64,000 nucleotides of DNA from Saturnia japonica (taxonomy: Eukaryota; Arthropoda; Insecta; Lepidoptera; Saturniidae), in the NCBI GenBank assembly GCA_033032175.1, contig CM065309.1, forward strand, positions 7,006,001 through 7,070,000, in the 5' to 3' direction. Numbering within the stretch: the stretch's first letter is position 1; every line of letters starts with the position of its first letter. Shown piece after piece: positions 12,301 through 44,424 of the stretch. The notes under the pieces were generated by a model. It was not told the DNA's origin, did not search any database, and saw only the letters and a list, made by a program, of their open reading frames with translations. Made by a program: the position numbers and the translations under genes.

Positions 12301-12306
12301 TTTATT
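12301..12306 (-). terminator. Serpin poly(A) signal AATAAA
   Basis: AATAAA on the minus strand, about 43 bp after the serpin stop codon (12349-12351). It marks the probable 3' end of the TIL-serpin transcription unit. Confidence 0.65.
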
Positions 12307-12348: not shown

Positions 12349-12479
12349 TTAACCGTTGAACACTCCACAGAAAACCAAAGTTGTTTGATATTTTATACAA
12401 CAAACGAATGGATGATCTGCTTTGAAAACCTGGATTACTGGAAGTTGAAGTGGTAAACTTAATGTTGCTATACCAACAG
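12349..12479 (-). CDS. Serpin terminal exon: reactive-centre loop and C-terminus
   Basis: After an acceptor (TTTACAATTACAG) the exon completes a phase-1 codon and reads VGIATLSLPLQLPVIQVFKA, then DHPFVCCIKYQTTLVFCGVF and NG before TAA. The block F-x-A-D-H-P-F followed by LVFCGVF is the conserved serpin C-terminus (strands s4B/s5B), so family identity is secure. Joined to 17200-17344, the hinge E-T-G-I-E-A-V-A-A-T continues A-V-G-I-A-T-L-S. Counting 17 residues from the hinge Glu as in alpha-1-antitrypsin puts P1-P1' at Leu-Ser, which suggests a chymotrypsin- or elastase-like target (inference). It is separated from the previous exon by a 4.7-kb intron holding a pogo-type transposon. Confidence 0.85.
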
Positions 12480-13657
12480 CTGTAATTGTAAACATTTTTA
12501 AATTAATTTGTTACTGATTTAAATTTATTTTCACTGATACTAATCACATTTATTTGGGAACCATTTATGTATGTATTTTTTTAATGCACGTTAAAGGAAC
12601 TGTCTCTGATAGTAAGCACAGCACAATCCAAACTCAACGGCAAACATCGAAAAATATAAATATATTCAGATTATTGCAAATGACAATTAATTATAATTTT
12701 TAATAATACTTTAATACCGATTTATTTTCAAATATGTTCAACAGTGTATTTTAGCATATTAAGATTGCAAGAATGCAAGTCACTAATTTTATAAAGCACT
12801 CTGAATCATGTTTATCGCCTTTAATTACACTCCATAAAAATAATATTGTTTTGCTTTTTTTCTATATGCGTAAGCAATTTCTCTTTGTAAATTATTGTTG
12901 CTGTAAGTAAATAATTTTCTGTGTAAAATTGGCGTAGGTAGCTATGGTTCGTATTTACTTGTACTTTACTTCTAATTTTATCTTGTAGTTATAAAAAATT
13001 AAAGAGGTGCAAAAACCATATACGTCATTGGTAAGGTAATTAAAGTGCTCGGATACTTCGAATCGAACACGCTGCATGCCAGTAAGCCAAACCAGGTTTG
13101 AATCCTACAAGGAGTGAGTTTTAGGGGTAGGAAAACATCGTGATGGAATCATAGCATGATTGTAGCATAGCATGTTATAATTCCCATTTGGCTAGCTAGA
13201 ACTATAAAAATTGAGAATTTACAGCCAAACACCTATCGGTACGTTCCGGCAGCTACACTTAATACTCACTCAGTCCTACTTCTAAATTGGGCGTCTTAGC
13301 TACCGTATTGTAGTACGTGAGAAAAATATTAGGTGATCAAAACGCTCAAAAAAAAGACTTGGTGGATATAGCGCATTTCTCATACAGAGTTATGAAATAT
13401 TTTTTAAGAAACTAATGAAATATCGATTATTGAATGCTTGAACTTTTGTAACCAGGGCCGAAAAATTATTATGATATAACAAATATTTAAGAATTTATTA
13501 CAAGCAATACGACGCAAAATAGATATATTATTATCTCGTAGTATACAATGACAAATAATACACTGCTCCCTTCTTATGAACTTATACTCAAATCAAAAAA
13601 AATACTTTTGGCAATGAACTAAAGTAATTTGAAGAAAAATTTATTACCATCTAAGGG
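12480..13657. other. Serpin last intron, 3' part
   Basis: Mostly AT-rich intronic sequence. At about 13050-13115 a segment has GGTTTGAATCC, close to a tRNA B-box, and may be a SINE relic. At 13180-13310 lies a dispersed repeat (TAGCTAGAACT...CAGCCAAACACCTATCGG) whose relatives occur at 22.2, 26.4, 40.4, 41.75, 44.0, 52.1 and 59.2 kb. No exon seen. Confidence 0.4.
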
Positions 13658-13659
13658 TA

Positions 13660-16307
13660 GGGCAAACCTTGGCTAAGCAGTGATATGCAATAATTCGGTG
13701 ATAGTTTATTCCCGCTCTATAACTTAGTTACGGTATAAAGACGCAGTTTATACTAATTTTAAATAGATGGAGCTGTTTACAAAGTTTATTGTGCATCTAT
13801 GAGTGTTTCCGAACATTTTTTGAGAAGTTATCAAAATTTATCCAAATGTCAAATTCAGTTGTCAACGTAAATTTTTTTTAAAGTTGAGCGTGTCCTGCTT
13901 TATAAAAGGAATAATAATTAAATTATAGTTTAAAATGAGAAAAGAAAAAGGAAATCGTAATAAGGTAAGAGTATTAAATATTGTTGTATATTTGTAATCA
14001 ATATTTATATGAATTTTCATATTGAAATTCCTTAAGTTCGTTGGGTAAAATGTTCGTGTTTTTATGTAATAACTATATTTCTGTATCACAATATAACCAA
14101 GTTTAGTAAAATTAATAAAGATCTCAAAACACAATTCTCGAAACTAAGCATATTTTTAAAGCTTTTTAGCCTTGAATTACAAGCTGAATGTATCTTATTT
14201 TTTTACAGACTACTTGCTACAAAAAAAAAGTTTTAAAACGACCACTAGATAAGATTAAAAAAAAGAGTAAAACCTACAATTCGAGTAGCCTCAGAGCTGC
14301 TGTTATGGCATTAAAGATGGAAGTACTGTTTACCAGGCATCAAAAAGATTTTCTATACCATGGAGCACCTTGAAAGCATACTGCAATCGTTATCAGGAAG
14401 ACCCTACTTCCACATCTCAAGCAAAACGTGGGAAACCATTTATTTTGCCAGCAAATTAGAAATTGATCTCTTAAATTACATAAATAGAATGCAGGAAATC
14501 GGATTTGGGTTGACTGTGAAACAGATCCGTATAGTGGCTTATCGCTTAGCCGAAAGTGCTCAAATCAAACATCCATTTTCCAAAACCAAACAATATGCGG
14601 GATGGTATTGGTGGCTTCTTTTAAGAAGCGGTATAACCTTAGTTTGAGAACACCTGAGAGTTTATCAATAAATAGAGCTCAGTCAGCTACAAGAGAGGCC
14701 CTAAATGATTTCTATAAGATGCTTGAAGAGTTATATACAAAGTTGGAAATATTAAATAAGCCACATCGCATCTGGAATTTAGATGAAACTGGCTTTATGT
14801 TTATCATGAAGTCTGGCAAAATAGTAGCCATAACTGGTAAAACACATGTTTATAAACAATCTTTTGGGGAAAGAGGAACAACAACCACAGTGTTGCCCTG
14901 TGTGAATGTTGCTGGTGATTCAATACCACCTATGATCATTTTTAAAGGAAAACGATGGATGATAGGTTAAGAAGTGCTGAATTTCCTTGCCTCATTAGAC
15001 TTAGTGAAAAAGGCTGGATAAACAATGACTTGTTTTTGGAATTTTTCAAACATTTTATAGAAAACATCACTTTGGCCAGACCAGTGGTGCTTTTTATGGA
15101 TTCTCATAAGTCACACTTGGCTCCAGAGGTTCTAGAACTTGCAAACAAGGAGCAAATATACATTGTGACTTACCCTCCGCATCTTACACATTTATTGCAA
15201 CCTCTAGATGTTGGTATTTTTGCCCCACTAAAGTCAAAGTGGAGAAACATTCTAGACCAGTTTCAGATAGAACAACCAGGAGAAAAACCAACAAGATTTG
15301 ACTTTTTAAGGATGTTTTCTGCTGCATATCAAGAAACAATTGACAGAAGATCATTGATAGTGAACGCTTTTTCTAAAACAGGAATCTATCCCATCAATTT
15401 TAATGCTGTTCCTGACCATGCAATTGCACCATCATCAGTGACTTCTATTCTCTGTGAAAATGAAGTTTCCAATTCAGTAAGTCCCCAAAATGATAAATAT
15501 AACCAACAACCACAGGATTTAACACAGCCAGGGGGCTCAGGATTATTGCAGGATGTTTTAAAGTTTCCTAAAGGAAATACAAAGCGAGGCAAGAGACATC
15601 AACCTAAAAAAGGCAAGATATATGAACCCAATATATCACAGTTTCAGGCTGATAGGCTGATAGCAGAACCACTAGGTAGTAAAGATATTAACATATGTGG
15701 AACATGCAAAGGAAATTTTAACCATGATGTGAAACTTAAAAATGGTGCAGAATGGATTGAGTGCCAATTCTGTAAGATATGGTATCATGTGATGTGTCAA
15801 AATGTCATAAACCCTACATTTTTTCTCTGTTCTAATTGTGAAATTTCTGATTAATTATTTTAAAGGATATAAATATCCTCATTTCATTTGTTAATGACTG
15901 ATTTATTTCTTGATTGTGTAATGATTATAAAAGTTCCTGTTATTAATAAAAAACCAAATAAACCAATCACATGTATATCTAATAATTGATTACTTTGTTT
16001 GTTTTATTTGAAATTAGTATCTCATCCCAACCTGTCATTAGTATCACATCATAATCTGAATGGTATCACAAGATAATCTAACCTATGTCACACTTTTACT
16101 CAAGTATCACAAAATTATCTTATTCTAAGTTATGCATAAACAAAAATATTTTATACGAATTATTCACTATTTCTAACATATTTGCCTGTTACATACTAAA
16201 GATAATTGTATGCACTAATAAATAGCAATTTTTGTAATTTATCTGATCAGTGAAGAATATTCTGTGGGCAAAATACCTAACTATCACCAATTAGCCAAGC
16301 TTTGCCC
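13660..16307 (+). mobile_element. Pogo/Tigger-type DNA transposon with terminal inverted repeats
   Basis: The terminal inverted repeats are GGGCAAACCTTGGCTAA (13660-13676) and its inverse with one mismatch (16291-16307); similarity continues a few bases inward (GTGATA). TA dinucleotides flank both ends (13658-13659 and 16308-16309), the target duplication of Tc1/mariner/pogo elements. The 2.65-kb body holds a frameshifted DDE-superfamily transposase on the plus strand (14188-15854). It sits in the last serpin intron in the opposite orientation. The ends are well preserved although the gene is broken. Confidence 0.85.
14188..15854 (+). pseudogene. Pogo-like (DDE_1) transposase with C-terminal PHD-like finger, frameshifted
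   Basis: Four plus-strand pieces in changing frames give one protein in order. A helix-turn-helix N-terminus (NSSSLRAAVMALKM) is at about 14281-14320. A linker lies at 14360-14647. The DDE_1 core contains NLDETGFMF (first Asp, 14778-14805), FMDSHKSHL (second Asp, about 15094-15120) and HLTHLLQPLDVGIFAPLKSK (about 15180-15240), the hallmark of the pogo/jerky group. The C-terminus (15690-15850) has CGTCKG, then ECQFCKIWYHVMCQ and FFLCSNC, a Cys4-His-Cys3 PHD-type pattern. The last reading frame alone is 299 codons. Frameshifts near 14345, 14610 and 14960 make it non-functional as read, unless they are sequencing errors. Confidence 0.85.
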
Positions 16308-17199
16308 TACATGATCAAAATTCTACTTGTAATAATATTCCTCCTAAAATTTATCTTTATTTAGTATGAAAACATTAATTTGAATCGAGGTACTTAATCT
16401 AATTTCTAAAATAATGTTTTTGTTATTCTTCTACTTCTTATTCTTCCTAACTTGGCAACCGGTCCTCTTTAATGAAGACCATTACTGTCATTATCGAGTG
16501 AATTATAGTGTCATGTGTTATGACGATTCAGTATCCTAACAAGATGGTGGCTCCCTTGTTAGAACTTTGTAGGAAGATTTTGTGGGATCTCAGAATGAAT
16601 GCTAATAAGCTTATATTATAATCCACTTCACTTAAGCACAAAAACTAAACTATATCACGCAAAACGCCACCAATATTACATAATATAGGGTCAAAAACAC
16701 AAGTTAATGAATTAAAAATAAAAACCACAACATGTCATTTCAAGATTCCGCCAAAAACTTGTTTTTGTCATTTAATGAAATTATATCAATAAAGCGTGTC
16801 ACAGACGGTGAAGATATCGTTACATATAAATATCATACTATCTTAAGATATCACAGACGGCTAAGATACGTTACTATACATGATGGAAAAAATGAATAGG
16901 ACATGAAGGAAAAGTACATTGAATATTGAAGGTTGCAAATTTTACTTATAAGAAAAATTCTTTTGTTTTTTAAAGTAATATCAAGGACATTCACAAATTT
17001 GATAAAAAACCTTATTAAGATGAAATAACCATATCTTAAAATAGTGTAATATGAAAATATATTTGTTATCTTCGTCGTGTGTGATAAGTCCATTGAAATG
17101 TATGGCAAGAAATATTTTATCTTAACATAAAATATTATAAATATCATCTTCACCGTCTAACTGACACTCGAACACATAGATATATTACGTTAGTCATAC
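16308..17199. other. Serpin last intron, 5' part
   Basis: AT-rich with no recognised element beyond the pogo end. The open frame at 16851-17153 (minus) shows no recognisable domain and is not considered a gene. Confidence 0.4.
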
Positions 17200-17344
17200 C
17201 CGTTGCTGCGACTGCTTCTATTCCAGTTTCATCTACTTTAATTCTAGCTTTTTGTATAGCATTACTTATGTATATAGTGTCATTATTATTCACTATCCCT
17301 TTCAATTCAGCAGTGTATGGATTAAATACCTCCGTCACATTATA
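17200..17344 (-). CDS. Serpin exon: breach region and reactive-loop hinge
   Basis: A 145-bp exon (acceptor TATTATTCTAG, donor GTATGA) begins in phase 0 and ends in phase 1. It encodes YNVTEVFNPYTAELKGIVNN, then DTIYISNAIQKARIKVDETG and IEAVAAT. The serpin landmarks are F-N-P-x-x-A-x-L-x-G-I, the I-S-x-A-x-x-K-A strand and the proximal hinge D-E-T-G-x-E-A. The small residues in the hinge (A-V-A-A-T) are those of an inhibitory serpin able to insert its loop. Reading past the donor would give a premature stop (17150), so splicing to 12349-12479 is needed. An intron within the loop is the arrangement used in insect serpins with alternative C-terminal exons, but only one acceptor exon was found here. 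Confidence 0.88.
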
Positions 17345-17504
17345 CTAGAATAATATTTATTAATTTTATTTCATTAAAATTCAGTAATAAATGAGTTTGA
17401 AGTGTTTCTGTTAATGAATTTGGAAAATAAGCATGTTTGTTACTTTTTTCTGCATCCATTTAATTAATATGGGACATAATTAACACAAAGTGAATGCGTT
17501 AATT

Positions 17505-17700
17505 TTGACCAATATAAAATAACTTATCCTCTGTCTTTCTTTTGACCGCTTGAAAAGACACGACTCGCACTTTATCCTTCACTTGTTGGGAAAAGCTTCT
17601 TCTAGGTCTTCCTCTTCCTACCTTTCCTTCCCAAATTGTTTTAAAGAACTTGACAAAAGAAAGGCAGAGGATAGGGAATAGTGGCAATAACTGCTCCACC
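17505..17700 (-). pseudogene. LINE (RTE-like) C-terminal fragment in serpin intron
   Basis: The minus-strand open stretch contains GKVGRGRPRRSFSQQVKD followed by a Val/Lys-rich tail. This matches the G-x-x-G-R-G-R-P-R-R tail typical of some insect non-LTR reverse transcriptases and also seen at about 60720-60780. It lies in the intron between exons 17200-17344 and 17881-18090. Confidence 0.5.
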
Positions 17701-17880
17701 CACAAGAGCTTGAGATCATAAATTAAAAAAAAATAAAAAGAAACTTACAGATATCCTGTACACACTAAGAAATATATTATAATACGTAATATTGTATACG
17801 TCGATTTTTAAATAATTAAAACATATTTCTATATTTTACATATAACGATAACGTTCGTGTATAATTAATGTACTTGTTAC

Positions 17881-18090
17881 CTTTTCTAATACATCGACGA
17901 GGTTGATGACAGTTGTTATATCGAATTTAGGCAAATCTATTTGAACTGTTTCATAAGTAAATAAATTCATACTGTTGGAGAATGTATCAGGATCTCGTAA
18001 TTTTTCTACCATGCTTTGTAGTCCATCTATTGTTTTTGGAAGCCAGATTACGAAACTAAAGTTTCCTGCCTTGTAGTATAATTCGATTAT
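17881..18090 (-). CDS. Serpin exon: central beta-sheet region
   Basis: A 210-bp exon (acceptor CGACTTTCAG, donor GTAACAAGT), phase 0 at both ends, 70 codons. It encodes IIELYYKAGNFSFVIWLPKT, then DGLQSMVEKLRD and ETVQIDLPKFDITTVINLVD. The serpin signatures are the L-P-K-x strand after an F-x-F-V-I-W-L-P motif (s2B/s3B) and V-x-I-x-L-P-K-F-x-I (s2C/s6A). It joins in frame to the neighbouring serpin exons. Confidence 0.88.
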
Positions 18091-18543
18091 CTGAAAGTCG
18101 ACGAAATAAGCATTGAACGAGTTTTGAATTATATTTCTCAATATTTACCACTCATTTAAGTATTATAGACTATAGAACTTATAGACTATAATTATATATA
18201 TACTTTTAGACTTATAAGTCTACATAAAAATTACTATATATTTTAATTAATAGTCAATTTCTTCCGTTAAAGATATAATAAATAAGTAATCAGATTATAA
18301 GAAATAAACACCCTTAGATCAATGATAAAAATCTACATAATATATTAAATTGAAAACATAGAAACCTGATTAAACAATTATCTATTTGAACCGTTTTAAT
18401 TCATTACTTTTAATCGTGGCCGTGGACATCATCTTTTAACAATCGACTAATAATTAATGGTCTATATACAATAGTGGTATGATAACACTATACTAAAACT
18501 TTATTTTAGTTTAATAAGTATGCCTTTTTTATTTGTAATTTAC

Positions 18544-18684
18544 CTGAGCATCTAGAGTAGGATCTTCTGCGTAATTGAATGTTCCTTGTTGATACATTGT
18601 CGGTAAAGATATAGTTTTATTTGGTGCTACATAAAAATCTTTATTTTTGGTATTATTAGGGTTAAATTGTGAACTCCAAGTTCC
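18544..18684 (-). CDS. Serpin exon: post-NAxYF region
   Basis: A 141-bp exon (acceptor CATTTTTCTCAG, donor GTAAATTAC), phase 0 at both ends, 47 codons. It opens GTWSSQFNPNNTKNKDFYVA and continues SLPTMYQQGTF, ending LDAQ. G-x-W-x-x-x-F followed by T...F and x-M-x-Q-x-G-x-F is the standard serpin order after the N-A-x-Y-F motif, which closes the exon at 20271-20369. N-N-T is a possible glycosylation site. Confidence 0.88.
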
Positions 18685-18849
18685 CTGAGAAAAATGAGAT
18701 ATATTAAGAGTTTTATGTGTCTGGCATTCCCGCGAACGAAGCCATAGGCACAGCTATTATTTAATATAGAAATTATTTTTAAATATCCAGAAACGTATAA
18801 ATGTAAATAACTGGTAAATAACTTTTCTATTTGTGGTTCATTTAAGACA

Positions 18850-19430
18850 TTTTTTTTTTCTATCTGTGAAGGTAACGGTGGTTTCGCGGGCGTCAGTGCG
18901 AGCAAGTTTGGTTCCTAGGGATGGTCGCGTAATAAGCGTTCGATGCCTCGATATCATCATCGGGATCAGTAAAAATGTTCCACGAGCGGCGTTTTGCCCT
19001 CAGGGCATCGAATACTGGAGTGTAAGTCACGGCGCGGCGGTTCTCACCAACTGGTTCACGTGATTCGACGGGGTGTCCAAATATGATCTCGCAAGGGACT
19101 CTATGTACGATTCGATCGAAGGAAGATCCATATCTCTACAGAGGTCTAAGCTCCGAGCGAATAATGGTGCATCGACTAAATGACGTATTAAAGAATCTGT
19201 TGTAATTCTTTGAATAGGGTAAAATTGTATTTGGGCATATGCACGAATGCGGCCGCGGCATAGCTATATAATTTAGGATCTGGCGGACACATCATAGCAA
19301 GGGATACAAGCGGCCCAGGACAATGGCGGCTCTATTTCGAACTATACGTACATGTGCATTGAAGTTATTTTCTATTGTCGAGGGTAGCACCCAGTTATTT
19401 ATTCTGGGTGGCCCAGAGGGCTCCTAAAAG
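18850..19430 (-). pseudogene. Non-LTR retrotransposon ORF2 C-terminal fragment in serpin intron
   Basis: A GC-rich island in an AT-rich intron. In minus-strand pieces it reads ...RAAIVLGRLYPLL, then KLYSYAAAAFVHMPKYNFTL (one frame), then DLPSIESYIESLARSYLDTP and a terminal TPVFDALRAKRRSW. These resemble the C-terminal region of Jockey-type ORF2. It has frameshifts and stops and lies between serpin exons 18544-18684 and 20271-20369. Confidence 0.6.
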
Positions 19431-19439
19431 ACAAGACAC

Positions 19440-20270
19440 TCATAATTACACACTTATAAAAAATCTGTAGTCTTGTCTGTATATGTATTTTTTTCCAAAT
19501 TTCCTGTTATAAACGTCTATTATGAAGGATACTGATCAAAAATATGACATTTCAAAAATGTGTCTATCAATTTGCTTTTATTTCCGAGTGTAGCTCGAAA
19601 TCGGCTTGACTGATTTTGACTTGACGTTGATTACAATAGAAGCTAATGTCATTTCTCTGTGATAGGCTTTAAGAACTGTCAAGAAAGGTTTTAGAAAAAA
19701 AAAATGATTTAATTAGTATAATAATTATCATTAATATTTCTATGAAATCGTTTGTTTTTTTTTTTTGTGGAACACTACATTTTAGTCAATTCTGAACGGA
19801 TTTTAATGTAATGTTGTACGAAGGAAGTACATGTATAAGTAAAAATTATATATTTCTCAACTGATAAGTTATGAGAATTGTTGAGAAAATTAGTAAAAAT
19901 AAAATTACGAGAAGAAAATAATTACTGCGTAAGAAACGCGAGCCGAGTCAACAATGAAATATGTGGCAATTTAAAAACAAAAATGATACAACAAATAAAA
20001 TCGTCATAAAAATCGAACGTGTGATCTTTGATACAATTATTCAAGAAGCTTAATATTGAATTTATAACAATTTATCAAATATTATATAAATATGATATAC
20101 TTTAACTGACTTTCTTTACTTTATACTAACTAACTACACCATGTTGTTGGTAGGCTAGATAAACTTACTTCAACTTCTTATTTGTGTAGAAATTTTGTGA
20201 CCATCCAGTATAACTTTGAATATTAAATATTTTGCTATTTACACATAAAACTAAAATAATATTACATTAC
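19440..20270. other. Serpin intron with a dispersed AT-rich repeat
   Basis: The segment at 19455-19560 (ATCTGTAGTCTTGTCTGTAT...TTTTTTCCAAATTTCCTG) resembles 61935-62010. The remainder is AT-rich intron with no exon seen. Confidence 0.4.
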
Positions 20271-20369
20271 CAAGAAATACATAGCATTAATTAAGACCAT
20301 CCTAGTATCTGCACTCAACATATCAGGCGATATGAGATTTTGAATTAGATTGTTTGTTTCGTTAGCAAC
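20271..20369 (-). CDS. Serpin exon: signature NAMYF region
   Basis: A 99-bp exon (acceptor TTCTAATTTTAG, donor GTAATGTAAT), phase 0 at both ends, 33 codons. It encodes [20 protein letters not shown] followed by [14 protein letters not shown]-x-x-x-I-x-x-L-I and [11 protein letters not shown] are the helix F/strand 3A landmarks of serpins. The next exon supplies the expected G-x-W. Confidence 0.9.
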
Positions 20370-20576
20370 CTAAAATTAGAAAAAAAAAAATTATTAAAAT
20401 GCAAAGTTCATTATTCTTATGGAATTCATTAAAAATATTATGTATTGCACATTTTTTATTAGAGTTTATTACTTTATTATAGAACCTTTATTATAAATAA
20501 TAAAGCATTGTTTTTAATGAGCACATAGCCTTTGGCTGTAGGAATTTTGACTACTAAGTATTCTTTCTTAGTTTTT

Positions 20577-21210
20577 ACTAGCAACCCGCCCCAGCTTTGC
20601 GCGGGTAGCAGAGCATGTAGGTAGGTACATTTCTTGAAATGATAACTTCTTTTGGCGCGTTGAGCGATTTATGGTAGGGGAAGAACTTATGCGTTCGCGT
20701 GACCTTCGCGTCACTGATGAGCTCGACATGCTCGTGACGTATTGTGCTTGCATCATACTAGCGACGCGTAGTATAGCGGCCTTTGTACATGTGTACGCAA
20801 GCTTATACATTGTATATACTCGACTGTATCATATGCCTGTTTGACGTTTTGGATAGGTAAACTCTTGTGATTGTTATTAAAACACAACATTTAGTTTTCA
20901 CTTCTGTCGGCAGTCCTTATGACTGCTTTTTTTGTCGTGTAATATATTATATAACTATTGGTTTTGTCGGCGCACACCATTAAAGCTCCCAGTCGGCATG
21001 ATTTTTTCCGCCATCTTCCACATTCATCGTCATATTTCAGCTAATTTATACAGAACCTTCATGAATTATACACCTAAACCTTCCTCATGAATCACTCCGT
21101 CTGTTGATGAAAACTGTATGAAAATCCGTTCGGCAGTTTTTGATTTTATCGCCTTCAGACAGACGCGGCGGGGTCTATATTTCATAATATGTATAGATTT
21201 ATGTCAAAAT
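20577..21210 (+). repeat. Full-length lepidopteran interspersed repeat
   Basis: It begins ACTAGCAACCCGCCCCAGCT and ends with the conserved tail GATGAAAACTGTATGAAAATC...CAGACAGACGCGG. This head and tail recur in decayed form across the window (for example 23339, 25600, 37219, 43050, 48470, 52389). It is an intronic insertion in the serpin part of the gene. The short minus-strand open frame at 20568-20810 is a by-product. Confidence 0.65.
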
Positions 21211-21828
21211 TTAATTAATTATAATATTTCCGAGCATTTCTAAGGATATTATACGTGTGCTGCCCAAGGAAATTACGAAAGACATATCAACGAAAATACG
21301 ATTCTAACAATCACAAAAAGTGTTTGTTTAAGTAACAACGAAATTTCGGAGGGGGGAGAATTAGATCGCGACCAGCATACACCCAAAATTTAATAAGCCC
21401 CCGATATAAATTATCTATTCATTGAGACCATTCCATTGTATCCAAATACGATATATCTGCTGTAAGTTGGTGAGGAGTTAGGTATCCTACGATTTCCAGA
21501 CGATGCTGCAGCATCAGGTCAAGGTTTTTCTAATATAATTGAAGTAACACAATACCAACATACTGATCAAAACGAATACAAACACGACATACTGTCACAT
21601 AAATACTAAATAGTGTGCTATACCATAAGACAAAGTTAGAGAAATAAAAAATTAAATTAAAATATTAAAACAGAAATCACTAAGAAAGTATGTGCGTTAT
21701 TCGTGATCGTGTTCGTTTTAGAGTGTGTGTTTGTGCGTGTTTGTAATTTAGTATTTAATAGTATAAAGAAATGTGTTTAATATATTTTTGTTCACAAAAT
21801 AATTTTTTTAATGCAGTTCAATACATAC
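21211..21828. other. Serpin intron, no recognised feature
   Basis: Unique-looking intron sequence with one purine-rich patch (GGAGGGGGGAGAA near 21350). No exon or transposon was recognised. Confidence 0.35.
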
Positions 21829-22032
21829 CCATTGATTAATTATATCAGCAGCTGTAACTTGATCACTGAAGTCAACATTTTCTGCTTCAGAATGGAAAAT
21901 GGTTTTAGCTTCATTAATAAATGTATCGGTCAAGGGATAATATATATTCGCATAATATTTGTTAGCGATATCAAAGATTACAGATTGTTGATCTTGAAAA
22001 CTGCTTAGTAATACTGGCATTGTTTCCCTTAT
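21829..22032 (-). CDS. Serpin exon: helix C-E region
   Basis: A 204-bp exon (acceptor TTGCTTATTCAAG, donor GTATGTATTG), phase 0 at both ends, 68 codons. It encodes IRETMPVLLSSFQDQQSVIF, then DIANKYYANIYYPLTDTFIN and NVDFSDQVTAADIINQW. The serpin landmarks are A-N-x-x-Y (strand 2A), the F-x-x-x-A-x-x-x-F/Y-x-x-E-x-x-x-V-D-F segment, and the closing I-N-x-W of helix F. The order fits between exons 22475-22618 and 20271-20369. Confidence 0.9.
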
Positions 22033-22159
22033 CTTGAATAAGCAACACAATTATTTATTGAGATACTATAAAAAGTAATTATGATTGTAAGCTCTGCATA
22101 TTGATTAATATGAGCCATGGAAGAACAACTCTTTTCTTTTATAGGTACTTGTGTATAAT

Positions 22160-22340
22160 CCTCGCTGATTTTAAGTAACGACGCAACGTGACCAAAGATG
22201 GTAACACATCAAATATAGAGGGACTAGTTCTCAAGAGCAACTGCCAGAAGTCACCTATGTAACTGTAGGTGCTTGTTGACACATTTTCAACTTTCCTGTG
22301 GTAGCTAACCAGATAGTCATTAGAAAATGCCCTAAAACTA
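22160..22340. repeat. Dispersed repeat in serpin intron
   Basis: TAAGTAACGACGCAACGTGACCAAAGATGGTAACAC...CTCAAGAGCAACTGCCAG belongs to the same family as 52080-52200, 26400-26580 and 40380-40500 (the 'constitutively repeated' G-A-T-G-G-T-A-A-C-A-C / CTCTCAAG modules). It is intronic. Confidence 0.45.
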
Positions 22341-22474
22341 TATAAAGCTACTACGAACTTGCTAACACCATATTTTTATTCGAATAAATTAATACTTTAA
22401 TTACTTAACTAAGTGAATTTATAATAACAATTAAATATATCATAATATGTCAATGTTCTAAATGTTATTGGTAC

Positions 22475-22618
22475 CTGATCTTTATTATTGAGGTTTAGAA
22501 ATCTCAAAAGTTGTTCCAGTGTCAAACCATAAGCATACAAGGATATTTCTGCAAACGGAATCATCGCAGAAAGTGATGACGCTACGAAGCTTACTCCGGG
22601 ATTACTTTGAACTGATTG
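22475..22618 (-). CDS. Serpin exon: helix A-B region
   Basis: A 144-bp exon (acceptor TTTCTTTCACAG, donor GTACCAAT), phase 0 at both ends, 48 codons. It encodes QSVQSNPGVSFVASSLSAMI, then PFAEISLYAYGLTLEQLLRF and LNLNNKDQ. The pattern matches the serpin stretch N-x-x-x-S-x-x-S-x-x-x-x-x-A-x-x-x-x-G-A-x-x-x-T-x-x-Q-L. The usual 'P-x-S' and 'G-A-x-G-x-T' residues are partly replaced (A-S-S-L-S, A-Y-G-L-T). Confidence 0.85.
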
Positions 22619-23104
22619 CTGTGAAAGAAATAATTATAATGATAACATCCTTATTTTCTTAATTGAATATGATTAATATACAGATAGGTAGGTCTATCTT
22701 AAAGTTTACCTCTATCATATTCGGCTAAGCTTTTCACTTAGATGACTTTACTGATTATGATGTGCTAGAAGCCATCTTTCTACTGGGATTCCAAGTTATT
22801 GTTTTTTTTTTTTTTGATAAACTTTGTTTTTCTGCAAATGTATTTTTAAATACAGCTCTAGACGCTCTCTGTCTATCTCTGCCTCATTCTGGGTAGTATT
22901 TAACAACAGGAATGCTATTCACCATTTTTTTTTTTTATTCAAGTGACTTTGAGAAGTCCGAAATAGAGAGGAAACCGGTCGTAGCATTTCATAAAAATTA
23001 ATAAAATTGACTAGACTTTTTTATATGGTGTAAGTAGTTTTATTTCTATAGTTTCAAATAATTTAAAAAAAACTGAATAGTAACATTTAAATATATTCAC
23101 TTAC

Positions 23105-23229
23105 ATATAATAGTTCACCGGCTAAAGCCAAATTTCCTTTACGGAATGCAGCTAATTCTGTCGTAATGTTACCTTGCGGTACAGAAGTAGTGGGTGTAGG
23201 AGTAGTGCTAGTATTCGTCGAAGGCTGTG
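23105..23229 (-). CDS. Serpin first recognised exon: Ser/Thr/Pro linker and helix A
   Basis: A 125-bp exon (acceptor ATTATGTTACAG, donor GTAAGTGAA) starts in phase 1 and ends in phase 0. It encodes QPSTNTSTTPTPTTSVPQGN followed by ITTELAAFRKGNLALAGELLY. The first half is a mucin-like linker; the second matches serpin helix A (F-x-x-x-L-x-x-x-L). There is no start codon or signal peptide. Because it starts in phase 1, it can accept any upstream TIL exon directly: GCG-type ends give G+CA = Ala. I searched the minus strand from 23230 to 25358 for an ATG plus hydrophobic leader ending in a phase-1 donor and found none. This is the key exon for the proposed TIL-serpin fusion. Confidence 0.8.
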
Positions 23230-23338
23230 CTGTAACATAATATGAGTCGAATTAAATCAAAGGCGACAAATTATGTCTTAATGATAATTCAAATAAACCT
23301 AATAAATTTCAATAGTATATAAAGACACTTATGGGAAA

Positions 23339-23600
23339 CTAGCTGTGCCGGCAGCTCCGCTCGCGTAGACTACAGAATGTCGGTATTAACGGTAACTCCG
23401 CTTCCATCCACAGCAGTTGCCTGCCAGTTATTTTAAGGATAAAAATTCTTATTATTTCTTGTGCGTGGAACCCTAATTATTTTTCTAAGATAAAAATAGC
23501 TTTAGTCCGTCCCTATAAAATCAGCTATGTGCCTGTGAAAGTCCAGCCATAATGGGTCTAACCGTTTCGGATATCATAAAAATGTTTTTTTTTTTTAGTA
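23339..23600 (+). repeat. Lepidopteran interspersed repeat
   Basis: Starts ACTAGCTGTGCCGGCAGCTC and contains the recurrent TTCTGCGTGGAACCCTAATT-like and GAAAGTCC...GTTTCGGATAT blocks also found at 25600-26040, 43050-43510 and 52389-52800. Intron or intergenic. Confidence 0.6.
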
Positions 23601-24580
23601 GCGTATGACACTTTCATTTATATTTAGTAGAAACCTAACATTTTGATATTAGAAATAGAAACTTCAATTTTATTTACTTGGATAGAATATTTGACTATTC
23701 GCTTTGGGTGAAAACCCAACAGTAAAATATATGCCATGGATACGATTGAAATTTAGAGGTTTATTTCAATCACTTACAAAATTATCGGTCAGACCTACTT
23801 GGCCGCGTTTGGTTTTATACGAATCGCATAACTCATGTGAGATGCTAGATTGCAAACACGTAGTACTTAACTAGCGAAAAGCAAATTGTTCACTAGAGCA
23901 GAAAAGTTTTTAACAACCGAGAGTATTTTTTAGGCGGTTACTTTATATTCTAAATCTTTAAAAGTTCCTTTTAGCGATATCAATTTAAAGTAGTTATGTT
24001 TTGTGGGTAACTAAAATACATTTGAAATATTTATTTACACATCAATAAAACGTTACTGAATTGATTATTTAATGTAATAAATGTATGGAACGGTGTACAT
24101 CACACTTTTTTATACGGAAAGCAAAAATTAGAACTGTATGGATAACGATTCATATATAAATCGATACAACTTTTCGCCGTCATAACCTTTATTACTTTCT
24201 TAAACTAGAAGCTTGGAACGCTTTAAATGCATGGGATTTAAAAAAAATGTTTATTGGTTGCAAATAAAATTATATTAATATGACACGTTCAAAACAAAAT
24301 ACATGATAAATAATTATGAAAAAATTACACTAGAAATATCTTCATTTCAAAATATTTTACTTTATAATAATCGTTTATTAGAATTATGAAGTCCAATGTA
24401 AAATTCTCTTGGACAGTCAATATTATTATTATTGTATTAAAGAACTATTAAAATCAAATTCGTGAAAATACTTGGAAGAAGTCAACTAACAAAGATAAAA
24501 AATGGATGGTTAGACCGTGAACTCTAAACCGGAGATGCTCGTTGAGATCAAAGTTATATCAGCCAAAATGACATGACATT
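23601..24580. other. Non-coding stretch between TIL unit 3 and serpin exons
   Basis: AT-rich, with no recognised exon or transposon. If the fusion model is right, this is part of the 2.1-kb intron linking TIL exon 25359-25541 to 23105-23229. No signal-peptide exon was seen. Confidence 0.4.
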
Positions 24581-24589
24581 GACAATTGA

Positions 24590-24765
24590 CAGAAGCGGTT
24601 CAAAAAACCTGATTTGGATGGAATAACAGTAGAACTTCTGAAAGTAGATAGCTCTACATTACAAAAGGAGCTGCAAAAGATCTTTATTCCCTTACTTTTT
24701 TACGGGAGAGTACCAGAGGCGTACAAGCAATCTATCATAGTGCTATTTTAAAAAATGGCAGATCT
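24590..24765 (+). pseudogene. LINE reverse-transcriptase fragment
   Basis: Reads KPDLDGITVELLKVDSSTLQ, then KELQKIFIPLLFYGRVPEAY and KQSIIVLF. This is the early RT block of RTE-like LINEs (D-G-I-x-x-E-L-L-K ... G-x-V-P-E-x-x-K-x-S-x-I). It is truncated on both sides. Confidence 0.7.
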
Positions 24766-24769
24766 AATC

Positions 24770-25358
24770 TCTTCAACGTCGTCTTCTGCAAGCTATTTTA
24801 GTGAGTCATCTCAATTAGTATCATAGACTCGACAAATTACAGTTTCCAGAGGGTTTTGTAACATGGACATATTAACATAGTTCACAAAATTATCAAGAAG
24901 CGATATGTATAGAATCAGCTTCTGTGTCGCTTTTGGAACTAAAAACATTTGGTTCAACTGAAGTTGAGCTGTTTTGAAACACTGCCGTGTATATACATCA
25001 AAGTTATGAACTGTTTGTCGATTAATGCAATAAATTTGTTGCAAATAGCATGTTATTTATTCTGAATTCAATAATGCAATTTAAAAAAATCAAACTACGT
25101 GTTTGTTAACCACCGCCCATATATATATATTATATAGAAGAAGATTACATCTATATTTTGGTTTATTAATATAAAACAGAACTGATGTTATAAGAGTGCG
25201 ATCCTTCATAGTAGGTGAAGGAAAATTATAACAATTGCTTACAAAGTAAGAATTTAGTAAAACATGTATTTTTTTCATCTACAATACATAATTATAAAAG
25301 TTAGATAAAAATATTTTATATAACATAAAATAATAATAAATACTTATAGCTTACATAC
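24770..25358. other. Intron-like stretch, no supported gene
   Basis: The open frames at 24811-25044 and 25090-25278 (minus) have no family features. The latter starts MKKIHVLLNSYF at a GTAAGC donor but in phase 0, so it cannot act as a leader for the phase-1 serpin exon. Confidence 0.35.
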
Positions 25359-25541
25359 CGCAGTCTATAGGCAAAACGCATTTTTTTTTGTTACTATCGT
25401 AGTAAAAGCCGTCTTTGCATGCACATCCATTGGCTGGGCAAGCTATAGGTGGACAAATTCTTTTTACGCCAATACTGGAGCATTGCTTATTACAATTAAA
25501 ACTACAACCTGGTTCTGCATTAGGATCACCACCACATGTAG
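25359..25541 (-). CDS. TIL exon (unit 3, last TIL before the serpin)
   Basis: A 183-bp phase-1/phase-1 exon with acceptor TGTGTCTACAG and donor GTATGTAAGC. It encodes TCGGDPNAEPGCSFNCNKQC, then SSIGVKRICPPIACPANGC and ACKDGFYYDSNKKKC ending VLPIDCG. All ten TIL cysteines are present. The C5-C6 loop is C-P-P-I-A-C. It is the last TIL exon upstream of the serpin exons, and its phase allows direct splicing to 23105-23229. Its close relatives are at 41299-41481, 42814-42996 and 60054-60236, which share the loop C-P-R-I-A-C; here Pro replaces Arg, so its target specificity may differ (inference). Confidence 0.9.
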
Positions 25542-25589
25542 CTGTAGACACATATTATATTTAGCATATAATTTGAAATGTAACTTTAT

Positions 25590-26640
25590 TCTATAACTAG
25601 CTGCATCCGCGGGTTCACTCACGTGGACTACAGAATGTCATCGATTGGGCACACGCGCGAATCATGAAACCCCGCTCCCGGCTATTTTAAAGACAAAAAT
25701 GATGACTTTTTTTGTAGGTATTTTTGATGACTAAACTTGTGTAGTATATTAATTTGATATATCTCTTATGGTTTACTCAGTGCAAGTCATTTAAGCATCC
25801 GAATTGATTAACCATGAATAGTTTTTTTTATTTGCGCAGAAACCCTAATTCTTTTTCTAAAATAAAAGTAGCCTAACAAGTATCTTAGGCTAGTTTAAGA
25901 CTATGTAGTACCTTATAATATCAGCTATCTTCCAGTGAAAGTTTCATCAAAATCGGCCCAATCGTTTCGGAAATACACGGAATAAACATATAGAAAAACA
26001 GGACAGACCAAAATTTTACAAGTTGGTGTTTTGTTACAGGTTCCATACAAGCTTATAGTAAAAAACGTTTATTTTGAGATACAAATACTTTCATTTTATT
26101 AATTGTACCTATTACTATGAATAAACACATTTTGATAGTTTATGATAGAATATATATAATAACTGTTCCACCGGATCAATAATGTTATCATACTTTTTAT
26201 AAATAAACCCAATTATAAATAATGAATGAAATTGTAAATGAATTTTTGAATTACATACATTATTACATATTTTCGTTTTGTAAACTGACGAGTTTAATGT
26301 CAAAAGGCATTTTATTTTAGCTAAGCAATCAAAAATCATAGACGGTAGAGCTATTGGTGGTTTAGAAAAGGGGATATAATAAAGCATATTGGTGGGATAT
26401 TTTCTAATACCAGTCTGGCTAACTACTACCCTCAAATGGAAAATCTGTCGCCAAGCACCTATAAGCGTGTTCCGAAAACTGCACTCGTGAAGAAGTCCCG
26501 CCACTAGTCTTAGCGTGTTACTATCTTGGGTTATATATCGTCGCTTAACATCAAGTGAGATCGTAACCAAACGTTGAATCTATATAGAATTTTACAAAGG
26601 ACTAGATTTATAGTATACATGTTATATTAACACAAATAAT
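25590..26640. repeat. Interspersed repeats in TIL intron (duplicated at 43045-44190)
   Basis: It starts with ACTAGCTGCATCCGCGGGTT at 25598 and runs through the CTAATTCTTTTTCTAAAAT and GTTTCGGAAATACACGGAA blocks to about 26030. A second repeat (AGCTATTGGTGGTTTAG...CTTAGCGTGTTACTATCTTGGG) follows at 26340-26570. The long minus-strand open frame 26115-26570 arises from this repeat and is repeated at 43625-44122. It is not a gene. Confidence 0.65.
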
Positions 26641-26680
26641 GCACTAAATATGATAAGGATTTAGTTATTATAATACTTAC

Positions 26681-26872
26681 AACAATTATTTTTTGGTATA
26701 CACGTCCCATTGTTATCCCTGACATAGTCGTTTTGACAAATACATCCTTTGATGCAAGAATTAGAATCAATAAGTGGGCAAGCCACAGGTTTGCCTAACT
26801 GAGAACAGGTAATGGGACCACATTGTCCTTGTATACAGTCACTATAAATTTCATATTGTCCACAGGTTGGCG
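26681..26872 (-). CDS. TIL exon (unit 3, IQGQCG type)
   Basis: A 192-bp phase-1/phase-1 exon, acceptor CTCATTTATAG, donor GTAAGTATT. It encodes PTCGQYEIYSDCIQGQCGPI, then TCSQLGKPVACPLIDSNSC and IKGCICQNDYVRDNNGTC ending IPKNNC. It has ten cysteines and the loop C-P-L-I-D-S-N-S-C between C5 and C6, longer than in the 183-bp class. The sequence is the same as at 44233-44424, reflecting recent duplication. Confidence 0.9.
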
Positions 26873-26973
26873 CTATAAATGAGAATAATTTACAAGTAGT
26901 CTTTAAAAAATATCAATAAATTAATTATTTTCAAATTTCAAACAGCGATATTATAAATTTCGTATTCACTTAC

Positions 26974-27156
26974 TGCAGTCTTTAGGTGGAACACATTTTT
27001 TTGTATTATCATCATAATAGTACCCGTCTTTACAGTCGCATCTATTTTCGTAACAAACGTCAATACACAATTGTTCCTCTTTTCCTATATTCGAGCATTT
27101 CTTATTACAGTATACGCCACAGCCAGATACAGCGTTGGGATCACCTCCACAAGAAG
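26974..27156 (-). CDS. TIL exon (unit 3, GGDPNAVSG type)
   Basis: A 183-bp phase-1/phase-1 exon, acceptor AATTCCTAATAG, donor GTAAGTGAA. It encodes SCGGDPNAVSGCGVYCNKKC, then SNIGKEEQLCIDVCYENRC and DCKDGYYYDDNTKKCVPPKD plus C. It has ten cysteines; the C5-C6 loop is C-I-D-V-C. Its paralogue at 44526-44708 appears identical. Confidence 0.9.
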
Positions 27157-27454
27157 CTATTAGGAATTGATAAAATATGCTTTAGTAGCTCATTAACACA
27201 AAAATAATGTTGTCATGTTGCTTATTATAAAATCAAACTTTAAATATTAGGGATATGGTAAAAATTGAACAATTTGCTTTGTTATAAAATCCAATATAAT
27301 TTTAAGTAGTACACATATACAACAATTCAAATAAAGGTAAAGTTTAGAAATGTATTTTTTTTGCTAAATTATGAATTACATGTTGTGTTTGAGTACATAA
27401 GAATTTCAAATTTTCTGATAATAGCATCCTCTCTATGTGTATAAGTAGACTTAC

Positions 27455-27509
27455 GACAAGATTGTTTCGGTATGCACGTGCCGTTCCCTGCTCTAACATA
27501 GTCGTCTTT
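27455..27509 (-). pseudogene. Truncated TIL exon cut by a deletion
   Basis: The donor side (GTAAGTCTAC) and the last ~18 codons, including the end PKQSC and the N-G-T-C region, match the exon at 45014-45205. The match stops at about 27509 and continues as sequence homologous to 47270 onward (CAACTGACGCATCCTACACA). Seven upstream cysteines and the acceptor are lost. Compared with the gene B unit, about 2.2 kb (45.07-47.27 kb) is missing, including a whole further TIL exon (45763-45945). Without an acceptor this remnant should be skipped in splicing. Confidence 0.85.
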
Positions 27510-27841
27510 CAACTGACGCATCCTACACATAGCGACATCTCCGCCACAACTGACATCCTTCGCGATATAGAAATTATCCTAACAATTAAGTATATATACA
27601 AGAACCCGACAACAACCGTTGGGTAGCTGCCCGCCAGACATAACACCCGTCTGGTCGGAGGATCCTCTCTTTTCTATGGCGGATGAGGAAATTTACACTC
27701 TGTTCCTCACTTCCGCTAAAATCCTATTTATAAATATTTGTTATTTTAAATGAAGCCTTATATTTAAACATAAGTAATTTCGCAATAAATTATTCAAATA
27801 CATAAAAGTATATTTTATTTTTGTAACTAAAACAAACTCAC

Positions 27842-28042
27842 GGCATTCATTTTGAGGTATGCATACGCCTTTATTGTTTCTTACATAGCCATCAATACAC
27901 ACACATCCCGGTTTTTCTGGACAGTTAGTATCGGCAGTCAAAACTGTGCAATTTAGTGGAAAACCTAACTGAGAACACGTTTGTGGTCTACATAAATTTG
28001 ATGTACTCTGCAAATATTTTTCGTTTACAGGGCACTGTGGTT
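27842..28042 (-). CDS. TIL exon (unit 3, EPQCPVNEKY type)
   Basis: A 201-bp phase-1/phase-1 exon, acceptor TTAATTTCAG, donor GTGAGTTTG. It encodes PQCPVNEKYLQSTSNLCRPQ, then TCSQLGFPLNCTVLTADTNC and PEKPGCVCIDGYVRNNKGVC ending IPQNEC. Nine cysteines are visible, so one of the usual ten (the second) is missing, as in the paralogues at 47601-47801 and 62996-63196. It is the highest-coordinate exon of unit 3; the next upstream exon expected from gene B (the type at 49000-49169) would fall where the AT-rich block begins. Confidence 0.88.
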
Positions 28043-40128: not shown

Positions 40129-40130
<2 letters not shown>

Positions 40131-40162: not shown

Positions 40163-40165
<3 letters not shown>

Positions 40166-41298: not shown

Positions 41299-41481
41299 CG
41301 CAGTCTTTGGGCAAAACACATTTCTTTCTATTTTTATCGAAATAAAAGCCGGCTTTACATTCACAGCCATTGGGTGGGCAAGCTATACGTGGACAGATTC
41401 CTTTTACGCCAATACTGGAGCATTGCTTATTACAGTTTAGACCACAACCTGGTTCTGCATTAGGATCACCACCACATGTAG
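41299..41481 (-). CDS. TIL exon (gene B, CPRIAC loop)
   Basis: A 183-bp phase-1/phase-1 exon, acceptor TTTGTCTACAG, donor GTATGTAGGC. It encodes TCGGDPNAEPGCGLNCNKQC, then SSIGVKGICPRIACPPNGC and ECKAGFYFDKNRKKC ending VLPKDCG. Ten cysteines; C5-C6 loop C-P-R-I-A-C with an Arg that could serve a trypsin-like target (inference). The protein is identical to that of 60054-60236. In minus-strand order it is the last TIL exon before the gypsy remnant and the AT-rich block. Confidence 0.9.
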
Positions 41482-42915: not shown

Positions 42916-42996
42916 CTTTTACGCCAATACTGGAGCATTGCTTATTACAATTAAAACTACAACCTGGTTCTGCATTTGGATCACCACCACATGTAG
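42814..42996 (-). CDS. TIL exon (gene B), chimeric between two paralogues
   Basis: A 183-bp phase-1/phase-1 exon, ten cysteines, beginning TCGGDPNAEPGCSFNCNKQC and continuing SSIGVKGICPRIACPPNGC then ECKAGFYFDKNRKKC. Its first part (GCSFNC) and upstream intron match unit 3 exon 25359-25541, while its second part (KGICPRIAC...) and downstream intron match 41299-41481. The switch lies within 42916-42949, where all three copies are identical. The exon therefore records unequal crossing-over inside a TIL coding exon that preserved the frame. Confidence 0.92.
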
Positions 42997-42999
42997 CTG

Positions 43000-44232: not shown

Positions 44233-44424
44233 AACAATTATTTTTTGGTATACACGTCCCATTGTTATCCCTGACATAGTCGTTTTGACAAATACATCCT
44301 TTGATGCAAGAATTAGAATCAATAAGTGGGCAAGCCACAGGTTTGCCTAACTGAGAACAGGTAATGGGACCACATTGTCCTTGTATACAGTCACTATAAA
44401 TTTCATATTGTCCACAGGTTGGCG
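44233..44424 (-). CDS. TIL exon (gene B, IQGQCG type)
   Basis: A 192-bp phase-1/phase-1 exon (acceptor CTCATTTATAG, donor GTAAGTATT) encoding PTCGQYEIYSDCIQGQCGPI and onward to IPKNNC. Ten cysteines; C5-C6 loop C-P-L-I-D-S-N-S-C; N-G-T near the end is a possible N-glycosylation site. The copy at 26681-26872 is essentially identical. Confidence 0.9.

What the first reader, a model, noticed from the sequence alone, without database searches (positions are those of the whole stretch)
12349..28042. Candidate TIL-array/serpin fusion: one gene encoding many TIL inhibitors followed by a serpin domain
Seen: every TIL exon ends in phase 1. The first serpin exon (23105-23229) starts in phase 1 with a Ser/Thr/Pro linker, has no ATG or signal peptide, and follows TIL exon 25359-25541 on the same strand. 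No leader exon with a matching donor was found between them. The eight serpin exons join in frame to a stop and AATAAA. Known: TIL domains and serpins are separate inhibitor classes, and secreted insect serpins normally have their own leader exon. Inference: the two are joined in one secreted protein. I know of no described protein with this architecture, but I could not search.
Basis: partly seen in the sequence, partly recalled or inferred. Interest (0 to 1): 0.9.

Follow-up and report, generated by a model that had tools for sequence, protein, structure and literature searches.

The report
Moth silk-type TIL-serpin fusion gene
A moth gene encodes one secreted protein with 13 small protease-inhibitor (TIL) domains followed by a large serpin inhibitor; the fusion looks real, but the same kind of protein is already recorded in other moths and butterflies, where examples have been found in the silk gland and in cocoons.

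Summary
The complete model has 23 exons over 53223-12349: leader, linker, 13 TIL domains, serpin (1277 aa). A second, alternative last exon (11480-11347) carries a different reactive-centre loop, as in lepidopteran serpin-1. Fifteen public proteins from 13 lepidopteran species, mostly automatic gene models, have the same TIL-plus-serpin order. One is Ek-Zon2, eighth most intense cocoon protein of Ephestia (PMC9745057). Codling moth CpSPN25 (serpin plus TIL) is highly expressed only in the silk gland, and that paper reports TIL-bearing serpins in nine further Lepidoptera (PMC10671500). The fused serpins form one clade (93.5/89) beside Manduca serpin-1. The window gene is a new member of this family, probably from a bombycoid-type moth. 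What may be new: two alternative loop exons, a non-canonical hinge (P14 Ile), and near-identical TIL blocks, which may partly be an assembly artefact. Best mechanism: a silk-coat, multi-headed protease shield. This is inferred, not tested.

The parts
53272..53278 (-). TATA-box-like TATAAAA about 55 nt upstream of the start codon
   Evidence: sequence; promoter role inferred
53160..53223 (-). leader exon: ATG and signal-peptide-like MLKEVFVLAVTAILFFIKPTF, phase-1 donor
   Evidence: matches a leader HMM built from six relatives only, E 0.0015, best of the window; 6 of 15 relatives begin MLK or MMLK; one of 3 strict scan hits on the minus strand
52983..53087 (-). Ser/Thr/Asn-rich linker exon, phase 1-1
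51023..51211 (-). TIL exon 1
49973..50173 (-). TIL exon 2
47601..47801 (-). TIL exon 3
45763..45945 (-). TIL exon 4
45014..45205 (-). TIL exon 5
44526..44708 (-). TIL exon 6
44233..44424 (-). TIL exon 7
42814..42996 (-). TIL exon 8
41299..41481 (-). TIL exon 9 (identical to the exon at 60236-60054)
27842..28042 (-). TIL exon 10
27455..27509 (-). truncated TIL exon remnant: 5' part and acceptor lost with a ~2.2 kb deletion relative to the duplicate block at 42.8-48.2 kb; not in the model
26974..27156 (-). TIL exon 11 (identical to exon 6)
26681..26872 (-). TIL exon 12 (identical to exon 7)
25359..25541 (-). TIL exon 13
23105..23229 (-). serpin exon 1 with Ser/Thr/Pro linker
22475..22618 (-). 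serpin exon 2
21829..22032 (-). serpin exon 3
20271..20369 (-). serpin exon 4
18544..18684 (-). serpin exon 5
17881..18090 (-). serpin exon 6
17200..17344 (-). serpin exon 7, ends in the hinge (..ETGIEAVAAT), phase-1 donor
12349..12479 (-). last exon A: reactive-centre loop with predicted P1-P1' Leu-Ser, stop
12301..12306 (-). AATAAA after last exon A
11347..11480 (-). alternative last exon B: different reactive-centre loop, same acceptor phase, own stop
   Evidence: found by tblastn, model, RCL HMM; only two such exons stand out in the window
11255..11260 (-). AATAAA after last exon B

Best explanation
This is one gene on the minus strand, about 42 kb long. It encodes a secreted, cysteine-rich protein: signal peptide, Ser/Thr linker, 13 TIL domains, Ser/Thr/Pro linker, and a serpin domain of serpin-1 descent. 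It belongs to the lepidopteran TIL-serpin family, called zonadhesin-like (Zon2, Zon4B-L) in silk work and CpSPN25 in serpin work. By analogy with those relatives it is made in the larval silk gland and deposited in the silk coat. The TIL array would serve as a disulfide-rich scaffold and a set of small canonical inhibitors. The C-terminal serpin would trap proteases, with its target choice set by one of two mutually exclusive last exons (loop A, P1 probably Leu; loop B, P1 Ala or Thr, uncertain). The array grows by duplication of phase 1-1 TIL exon blocks. Shown: exon structure, domains, homology, duplicate blocks. Inferred: expression, secretion into silk, mutually exclusive splicing, inhibitory action.
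For: The gene model is complete, with GT-AG throughout and consistent phases. Pfam gives 13 TIL and 1 serpin on one chain. The leader is supported by an HMM from six relatives. The same domain order occurs in 15 proteins of 13 lepidopteran species, with 2-17 TILs by my HMM. P0009 is Ek-Zon2: MW 101.09, GRAVY -0.235 and C/S/N content equal Table 1 of PMC9745057, where proteome and qPCR evidence is listed. CpSPN25 has 814 aa, 16 exons and BmSPN1 as homolog, and is highly expressed only in the silk gland. The serpin domain is closest in the PDB to Manduca serpin K. In the tree, read from the unrooted Newick, the 17 serpins of the fused family form one clade (93.5/89), with Manduca serpin-1K next to it (98.3/98). 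Exon B scores as well as exon A against the RCL HMM, though both were in it.
Against: There is no transcript or protein evidence for this species, and most of the 15 relatives are automatic gene models. The hinge has P14 Ile and P11 Val where 14 of 15 relatives read GTEAA at P15-P11 (the exception is Spodoptera, HTEAG), so the serpin may be a poor inhibitor. A serpin-only Bombyx model exists (P0126), though it starts at an internal Met of the fused one, to which it is 95% identical. The leader scan also gives 4 strict hits on the plus strand against 3 on the minus, so a scan hit alone proves little. Near-identical blocks could be assembly artefacts, so the TIL number may be wrong. No leader or 3' end was recognised for the TIL exons at 64-60 kb, so transcript limits are uncertain.
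Confidence: 0.72

Rival explanations
1. The fusion is real, but the serpin is no longer an inhibitor: the protein is mainly a structural or adhesive silk-coat component (zonadhesin-like glue) and the serpin is a globular cap.
For: Hinge P14 Ile and P11 Val depart from the relatives. Silk papers place zonadhesins among adhesive coating proteins (PMC9745057 passages; PMC9684489 passages). Ek-Zon2 is abundant in cocoons.
Against: The rest of the hinge and two intact loops are kept. Loop A keeps the TLSLP stretch of the Bombyx relative P0126, and loop B fits the family RCL profile (built with it). A pure cap would not need two loops.
Confidence: 0.3
2. Two genes: a TIL-only zonadhesin ending before 23.2 kb and a separate serpin with an unseen leader.
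For: TIL exons are phase 1-1, so splicing phase alone does not prove the join. A serpin-only Bombyx model exists (P0126). Zonadhesins described with TIL and EGF domains only exist (Yponomeuta, PMC9684489 passages).
Against: No leader-like exon in 25358-23230 at the strict cut-off (two weak ones at the laxer cut-off). Fifteen relatives carry both domains on one chain, including Ek-Zon2 with proteome and qPCR evidence. P0126 starts inside the serpin.
Confidence: 0.05
3. The gene is longer than modelled: TIL exons at 63998-60054 and a leader beyond 64 kb also splice into this gene, with the 53.2 kb leader an internal alternative start.
For: All acceptors of the linker, TIL and first serpin exons are phase 1. 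No 3' end or serpin was recognised for the 64-60 kb TILs; terminal exons without a known domain were not searched for.
Against: The 53.2 kb leader has a TATA-like box, and a paralogous leader plus linker lies at 4307-4086 before the next TIL exon, which suggests discrete tandem genes.
Confidence: 0.15
4. The 13-TIL count is inflated by false duplication in the assembly (unpurged haplotypes joined in tandem).
For: Blocks 25310-28462 / 42761-48221 and 39112-41743 / 57882-60498 differ by at most 2% in 22 of 32 alignment windows, and 4 of 7 exon pairs compared differ by 0, 0, 0 and 2 nt.
Against: No N gaps (printed before it failed). No match of 150 bp or more at E 1e-20 between 28.5-39.1 and 48.2-57.9 kb, the stretches next to the blocks. 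One copy has a 2.2 kb deletion and a truncated exon, and the 25.5/42.9 kb exon pair differs by 18 nt.
Confidence: 0.3

Closest known systems
Ek-Zon2 of Ephestia kuehniella (ON604825; P0009)
   Same: Signal peptide, Ser-rich linker, 8 TILs, C-terminal serpin; same order
   Different: 8 rather than 13 TILs; hinge GTEAAAAT; detected in cocoons. The main text of PMC9745057 names only EGF_2/TIL (0 words beginning 'serpin'; supplements not read)
CpSPN25 of Cydia pomonella (PMC10671500)
   Same: Serpin (group A, BmSPN1 homolog) plus TIL; 16 exons would fit 8 serpin exons plus about 8 others
   Different: 814 aa, no signal peptide in that model; its sequence was not seen or compared here
Antichymotrypsin-2-like isoforms of Bombyx mandarina (P0008, P0126)
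   Same: Highest identities found: P0008 51% over TIL plus serpin, P0126 54% over serpin; P0008 leader begins MLK, 3 TILs plus serpin
   Different: 3 TILs; P0126 model lacks TILs; P0008 ends in an aberrant C-terminus
Zon4B-L of Andraca theae (P0007)
   Same: 48% identity over the region searched, 9 TILs by my HMM (7 by Pfam) plus serpin, Ser-rich linker
   Different: Only the database name and sequence were seen; no paper on it was read
Manduca sexta serpin-1 (PDB 1sek, 1k9o)
   Same: Best solved homologs by sequence; alternative last exons encoding the reactive-centre loop (PMC10671500 passages)
   Different: No TIL domains in the chains matched; 14 isoforms in M. sexta according to those passages, against two loop exons here
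Yponomeuta zonadhesin-like ZNL1-4 (PMC9684489)
   Same: TIL-bearing silk-coat proteins
   Different: Described with TIL and EGF domains; no serpin in the passages read

Membership tests
Lepidopteran TIL-serpin (zonadhesin-like Zon2 / CpSPN25 type) | Signal-peptide leader before the TIL array | tested here: met
   Leader 53223-53160 by hydrophobicity and HMM; no signal-peptide predictor was run
Lepidopteran TIL-serpin (zonadhesin-like Zon2 / CpSPN25 type) | Several TIL domains (PF01826) followed by a C-terminal serpin (PF00079) on one chain | tested here: met
   13 TIL plus 1 serpin on the modelled protein
Lepidopteran TIL-serpin (zonadhesin-like Zon2 / CpSPN25 type) | Serpin domain groups with the fused serpins, beside serpin-1 | tested here: met
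   IQ-TREE, 22 sequences, 328 columns; clade 93.5/89, Manduca serpin-1K next to it 98.3/98; only one non-family lepidopteran serpin included
Lepidopteran TIL-serpin (zonadhesin-like Zon2 / CpSPN25 type) | Silk-gland expression / presence in cocoon | not testable with these tools
   Seen only for CpSPN25 (silk gland) and Ek-Zon2 (cocoon proteome and qPCR listed)
Serpin-1 alternative reactive-loop cassette | More than one last exon with a loop, same acceptor phase, after a shared body | tested here: met
   Exons 12479-12349 and 11480-11347
Serpin-1 alternative reactive-loop cassette | Both last exons used in transcripts | not testable with these tools
   No reads available
Inhibitory serpins | Hinge consensus (Gly P15, Thr/Ser P14, small P12-P9, Thr/Ser P8; recalled) | tested here: inconclusive
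   G-I-E-A-V-A-A-T: P15, P12, P10, P9, P8 fit; P14 Ile and P11 Val do not
Vertebrate zonadhesin | VWD and other zonadhesin domains besides TIL (recalled) | tested here: not met
   Pfam shows TIL and serpin, a cEGF match lying inside a TIL, and a CDC48_N match below its cut-off; no VWD

The most novel reading that the evidence does not exclude
Silk TIL-serpins have kept the serpin-1 trick of alternative reactive-loop exons. One silk-coat protein would then be issued with the same TIL array but two serpin specificities, while its TIL array is rebuilt by block duplication within the species: a rapidly evolving multi-target protease shield on silk. In the passages I read, the silk ('zonadhesin') and serpin ('CpSPN25') papers describe one family without linking the two names.
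Probability: 0.5. Interest if true: 0.5.

Novelty: new member of a known kind. Interest (0 to 1): 0.32.

Why it matters
It supports the TIL-array/serpin join as a real, shared lepidopteran architecture rather than an annotation error. It links two bodies of work: silk 'zonadhesins' and TIL-bearing serpins. It also gives a testable mechanism: two loop exons in a silk protein predict two protease targets. The near-identical TIL blocks offer a case of exon-array turnover within one species, if the assembly is right.

Tried and rejected
Rejected: (1) a second serpin at 57.5-55 kb, suggested by weak tblastn hits. The translation there reads as a mariner-type transposase (by eye and recall). (2) Serpin-only Bombyx P0126 as proof of separate genes: it starts at an internal Met of the fused protein; being only 95% identical to it, it may be a paralogue or an incomplete model. 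(3) The TIL remnant at 27.5 kb as a working exon: it has lost its acceptor and 5' part.

Led nowhere: the genome search on the window's own assembly did not complete, so the flanks beyond the window, other paralogues and the serpin-1 neighbourhood were not examined. No lepidopteran serpin-1 was seen in their listings, so the tree has one lepidopteran serpin from outside the family. Supplements of papers could not be read. Seven paper searches were run. I saw no paper in their listings that names alternative loop exons in TIL-serpins. Of seven papers I read passages only (PMC10671500, PMC6567255, PMC5309989, PMC9745057, PMC12661448, PMC9684489, PMC3278429); the rest I saw as listings. TIL P1 residues were considered but left out, since the reactive-site position was recalled only.

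Corrected on checking: the support values printed on the re-rooted tree were shifted along the path to the new root. The values given here are read from the Newick string of the same call. My count of relatives with hinge GTEAA was also mended (14 of 15).

Rows dropped: Spodoptera exigua P0022 (serpin incomplete) and isoform B from the tree; Bombyx P0008 and Spodoptera from the RCL HMM (aberrant or divergent ends).
Full report
Observation. Eight exons on the minus strand (23229-23105, 22618-22475, 22032-21829, 20369-20271, 18684-18544, 18090-17881, 17344-17200, 12479-12349) have AG/GT borders, join in one frame to a stop, and match Pfam serpin at E 9e-87. The first exon enters in phase 1 with a Ser/Thr/Pro linker and no ATG. 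One search printed 20 TIL-like matches, all on the minus strand: 13 used in the model (all phase 1-1), 1 truncated remnant at 27.5 kb, 5 at 64-60 kb (one cut by the window edge), and 1 at 3.3 kb. Because phase 1-1 exons can be joined in any combination, phase alone does not prove the fusion.

Leader and full gene. The missing leader is at 53223-53160: MLKEVFVLAVTAILFFIKPTF and a phase-1 donor, about 55 nt downstream of a TATA-like box. A Ser/Thr/Asn-rich exon at 53087-52983 follows. An HMM built from the leaders of six relatives, without the window's own, ranks the 53.2 kb frame first in the window (E 0.0015) and the 4.3 kb one second (E 0.08). Six of the 15 relatives begin MLK or MMLK. A cruder scan for ATG plus hydrophobic core plus phase-1 donor gives 3 strict hits on the minus strand (53223, 4307, 11055) but also 4 on the plus strand, so it serves mainly to show that none lies in the 25358-23230 intron. 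At a laxer cut-off it gives 21 minus and 12 plus hits, including two weak overlapping ones in that intron, from 25278 and 25209. The model of leader, linker, 13 TIL exons, 7 shared serpin exons and last exon gives 1277 aa and 23 exons. Pfam reads it as 13 TIL and 1 serpin; cEGF and CDC48_N also appear, with no stretch passing alone, and CDC48_N is below its cut-off.

A second last exon. A tblastn hit at 11484-11353 is an exon at 11480-11347 with the same acceptor phase as the last serpin exon, encoding another reactive-centre loop and its own stop; AATAAA follows at 11260. Against a profile of 15 loops (13 from relatives plus the two window exons), exons A and B score E 5e-20 and 2e-20; the next best reading frames are at 0.18. 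Both were in the profile, so the absolute scores are flattered; the gap to the next frame is what counts. The two encoded ends share 15 identical positions over 44 and 45 residues. Ostrinia nubilalis isoform X5 and O. furnacalis isoform X2 are nearly identical through the serpin body and differ from just after the hinge onward, which suggests the same device in relatives, although the two come from different species. Whether the two exons are used alternatively in the window species is inferred.

Relatives. Searching with the serpin part of the full protein returned 6 proteins, 3 of them with TIL and serpin. Searching with the last TIL plus serpin returned 155 (120 listed), of which 13 listed carry both. 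Together these are 15 proteins from 13 lepidopteran species: Diatraea, Danaus (2 species), Andraca, Bombyx mandarina, Ephestia, Galleria (2 proteins), Dendrolimus, Chilo (2 proteins), Ostrinia (2 species), Tuta and Spodoptera. They carry 2 to 17 TILs by my own HMM; Pfam counted 8, 7 and 8 in three of them where my HMM counted 8, 9 and 8. By their names most are automatic gene models. Brenthis ino P0127 also shows a TIL-like stretch before the serpin, seen by eye. No near-identical protein was found in the length ranges searched, so the source species may not be in that database.

Tree. Among 22 serpin domains (328 columns, body and hinge without the loop, supports SH-aLRT/UFBoot read from the Newick string) the 17 family members, counting P0126 and P0127, form one clade (93.5/89; 96.7/94 without Tuta). 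Manduca serpin-1K is next to it (98.3/98 against the beetle, fly and oyster serpins). The window serpin groups with Bombyx, Andraca and Dendrolimus (92.1/94). Several inner nodes are weak (for example 61.1/40 and 33.2/60). Only one lepidopteran serpin from outside the family was available, so a single origin is supported but not firmly tested. The best solved structure by sequence is Manduca serpin K, 1sek.

What is in print. PMC10671500 (passages read) reports a TIL domain in codling moth CpSPN25 (814 aa, 16 exons, BmSPN1 homolog), says the TIL domain was found earlier in P. xylostella and also in serpins of nine other Lepidoptera, and says CpSPN22 and CpSPN25 are highly expressed only in the silk gland. 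In one P. xylostella paper (PMC5309989, passages) Table 1 lists 25 serpins with one serpin domain each and separate TIL genes, so I could not confirm the claim for that species, nor did I check that it is the paper cited. PMC9745057 (passages) lists Ek-Zon2 as the eighth most intense cocoon protein of Ephestia, with proteome and qPCR evidence. P0009 matches its molecular weight (101.09 kDa), GRAVY (-0.235) and C/S/N percentages; my pI differs (5.108 against 4.907). That paper's main text describes zonadhesins by EGF_2/TIL domains and holds no word beginning with 'serpin'; its supplements were not read. So the architecture, the tissue and the cocoon location are on record, under two different names.

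How it probably works. By analogy the protein is secreted by the silk gland and ends up in the silk coat. The TIL array gives a disulfide-rich, multi-site inhibitor or adhesive scaffold, and the serpin offers a suicide trap for proteases. Loop A has a predicted P1-P1' of Leu-Ser, counting from the hinge as in serpin 1K (Tyr-Ser there by the same count), pointing to chymotrypsin- or elastase-like targets; loop B has Ala or Thr and is less certain. Against an inhibitory role stand P14 Ile and P11 Val in the window's hinge (GIEAVAAT), where 14 of 15 relatives read GTEAA. A structural cap therefore remains a real rival.

Array turnover. Blocks 25310-28462 and 42761-48221, and blocks 39112-41743 and 57882-60498, are near-identical: 92-98% in BLAST, at most 2% substitutions in 22 of 32 alignment windows, with the highest values at the 25.5 kb end. 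Of seven exon pairs compared, three are identical, one differs by 2 nt, one by 6, and the two pairs with the 25.5 kb exon by 18 and 22. The 42.9 kb exon is thus closer to the 41.4 kb exon than to its counterpart in the duplicate block, which points to local exchange between copies. The 25-28 kb block lacks about 2.2 kb relative to its duplicate, which removed one TIL exon and truncated the next (27.5 kb remnant). There are no N gaps in the window. Recent duplication and false duplication in the assembly cannot be told apart here.

Neighbours. A second leader (4307-4244), linker and TIL exon (3527-3345) look like the start of a paralogous gene downstream. TIL exons at 63998-60054 belong to an upstream gene or to a longer form of this one. 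Clustering of zonadhesin genes is reported in PMC9745057 (passage).

Verdict. The fusion is real with high probability. The claim of novelty does not hold: this is a new member of a known lepidopteran family. The alternative loop exons and the recent array changes are the parts worth following.

Noticed in passing
4307-3345 (minus): Probable start of a paralogous downstream gene: leader MLKHLFILVIMAILLLIKLPS (4307-4244), Ser/Thr linker exon (about 4172-4086), TIL exon (3527-3345); no further TIL exon found between it and the window edge.
   Followed up: partly
63998-60054 (minus): Five TIL exons (one cut by the window edge) upstream of the 53.2 kb leader, with no leader or 3' end recognised in the window.
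   Followed up: partly
39112-41743 and 57882-60498: 2.6 kb segment, 98.2% identical, each holding the same TIL exon; recent duplication or unpurged haplotype.
   Followed up: partly
14488-15854 (plus): DDE_1-type transposase (pogo/jerky-like, name recalled) inside the last serpin intron, in two overlapping frames.
   Followed up: no
57650-56500 (minus): Mariner-like transposase remnants (by eye) that gave weak serpin hits.
   Followed up: no
38139-39016 (minus): Integrase-like frames of an LTR retrotransposon (by eye) inside the 13 kb intron between TIL exons 9 and 10.
   Followed up: no
11846-11920 (minus): Poly-T run of 75 nt between the two alternative last exons.
   Followed up: no
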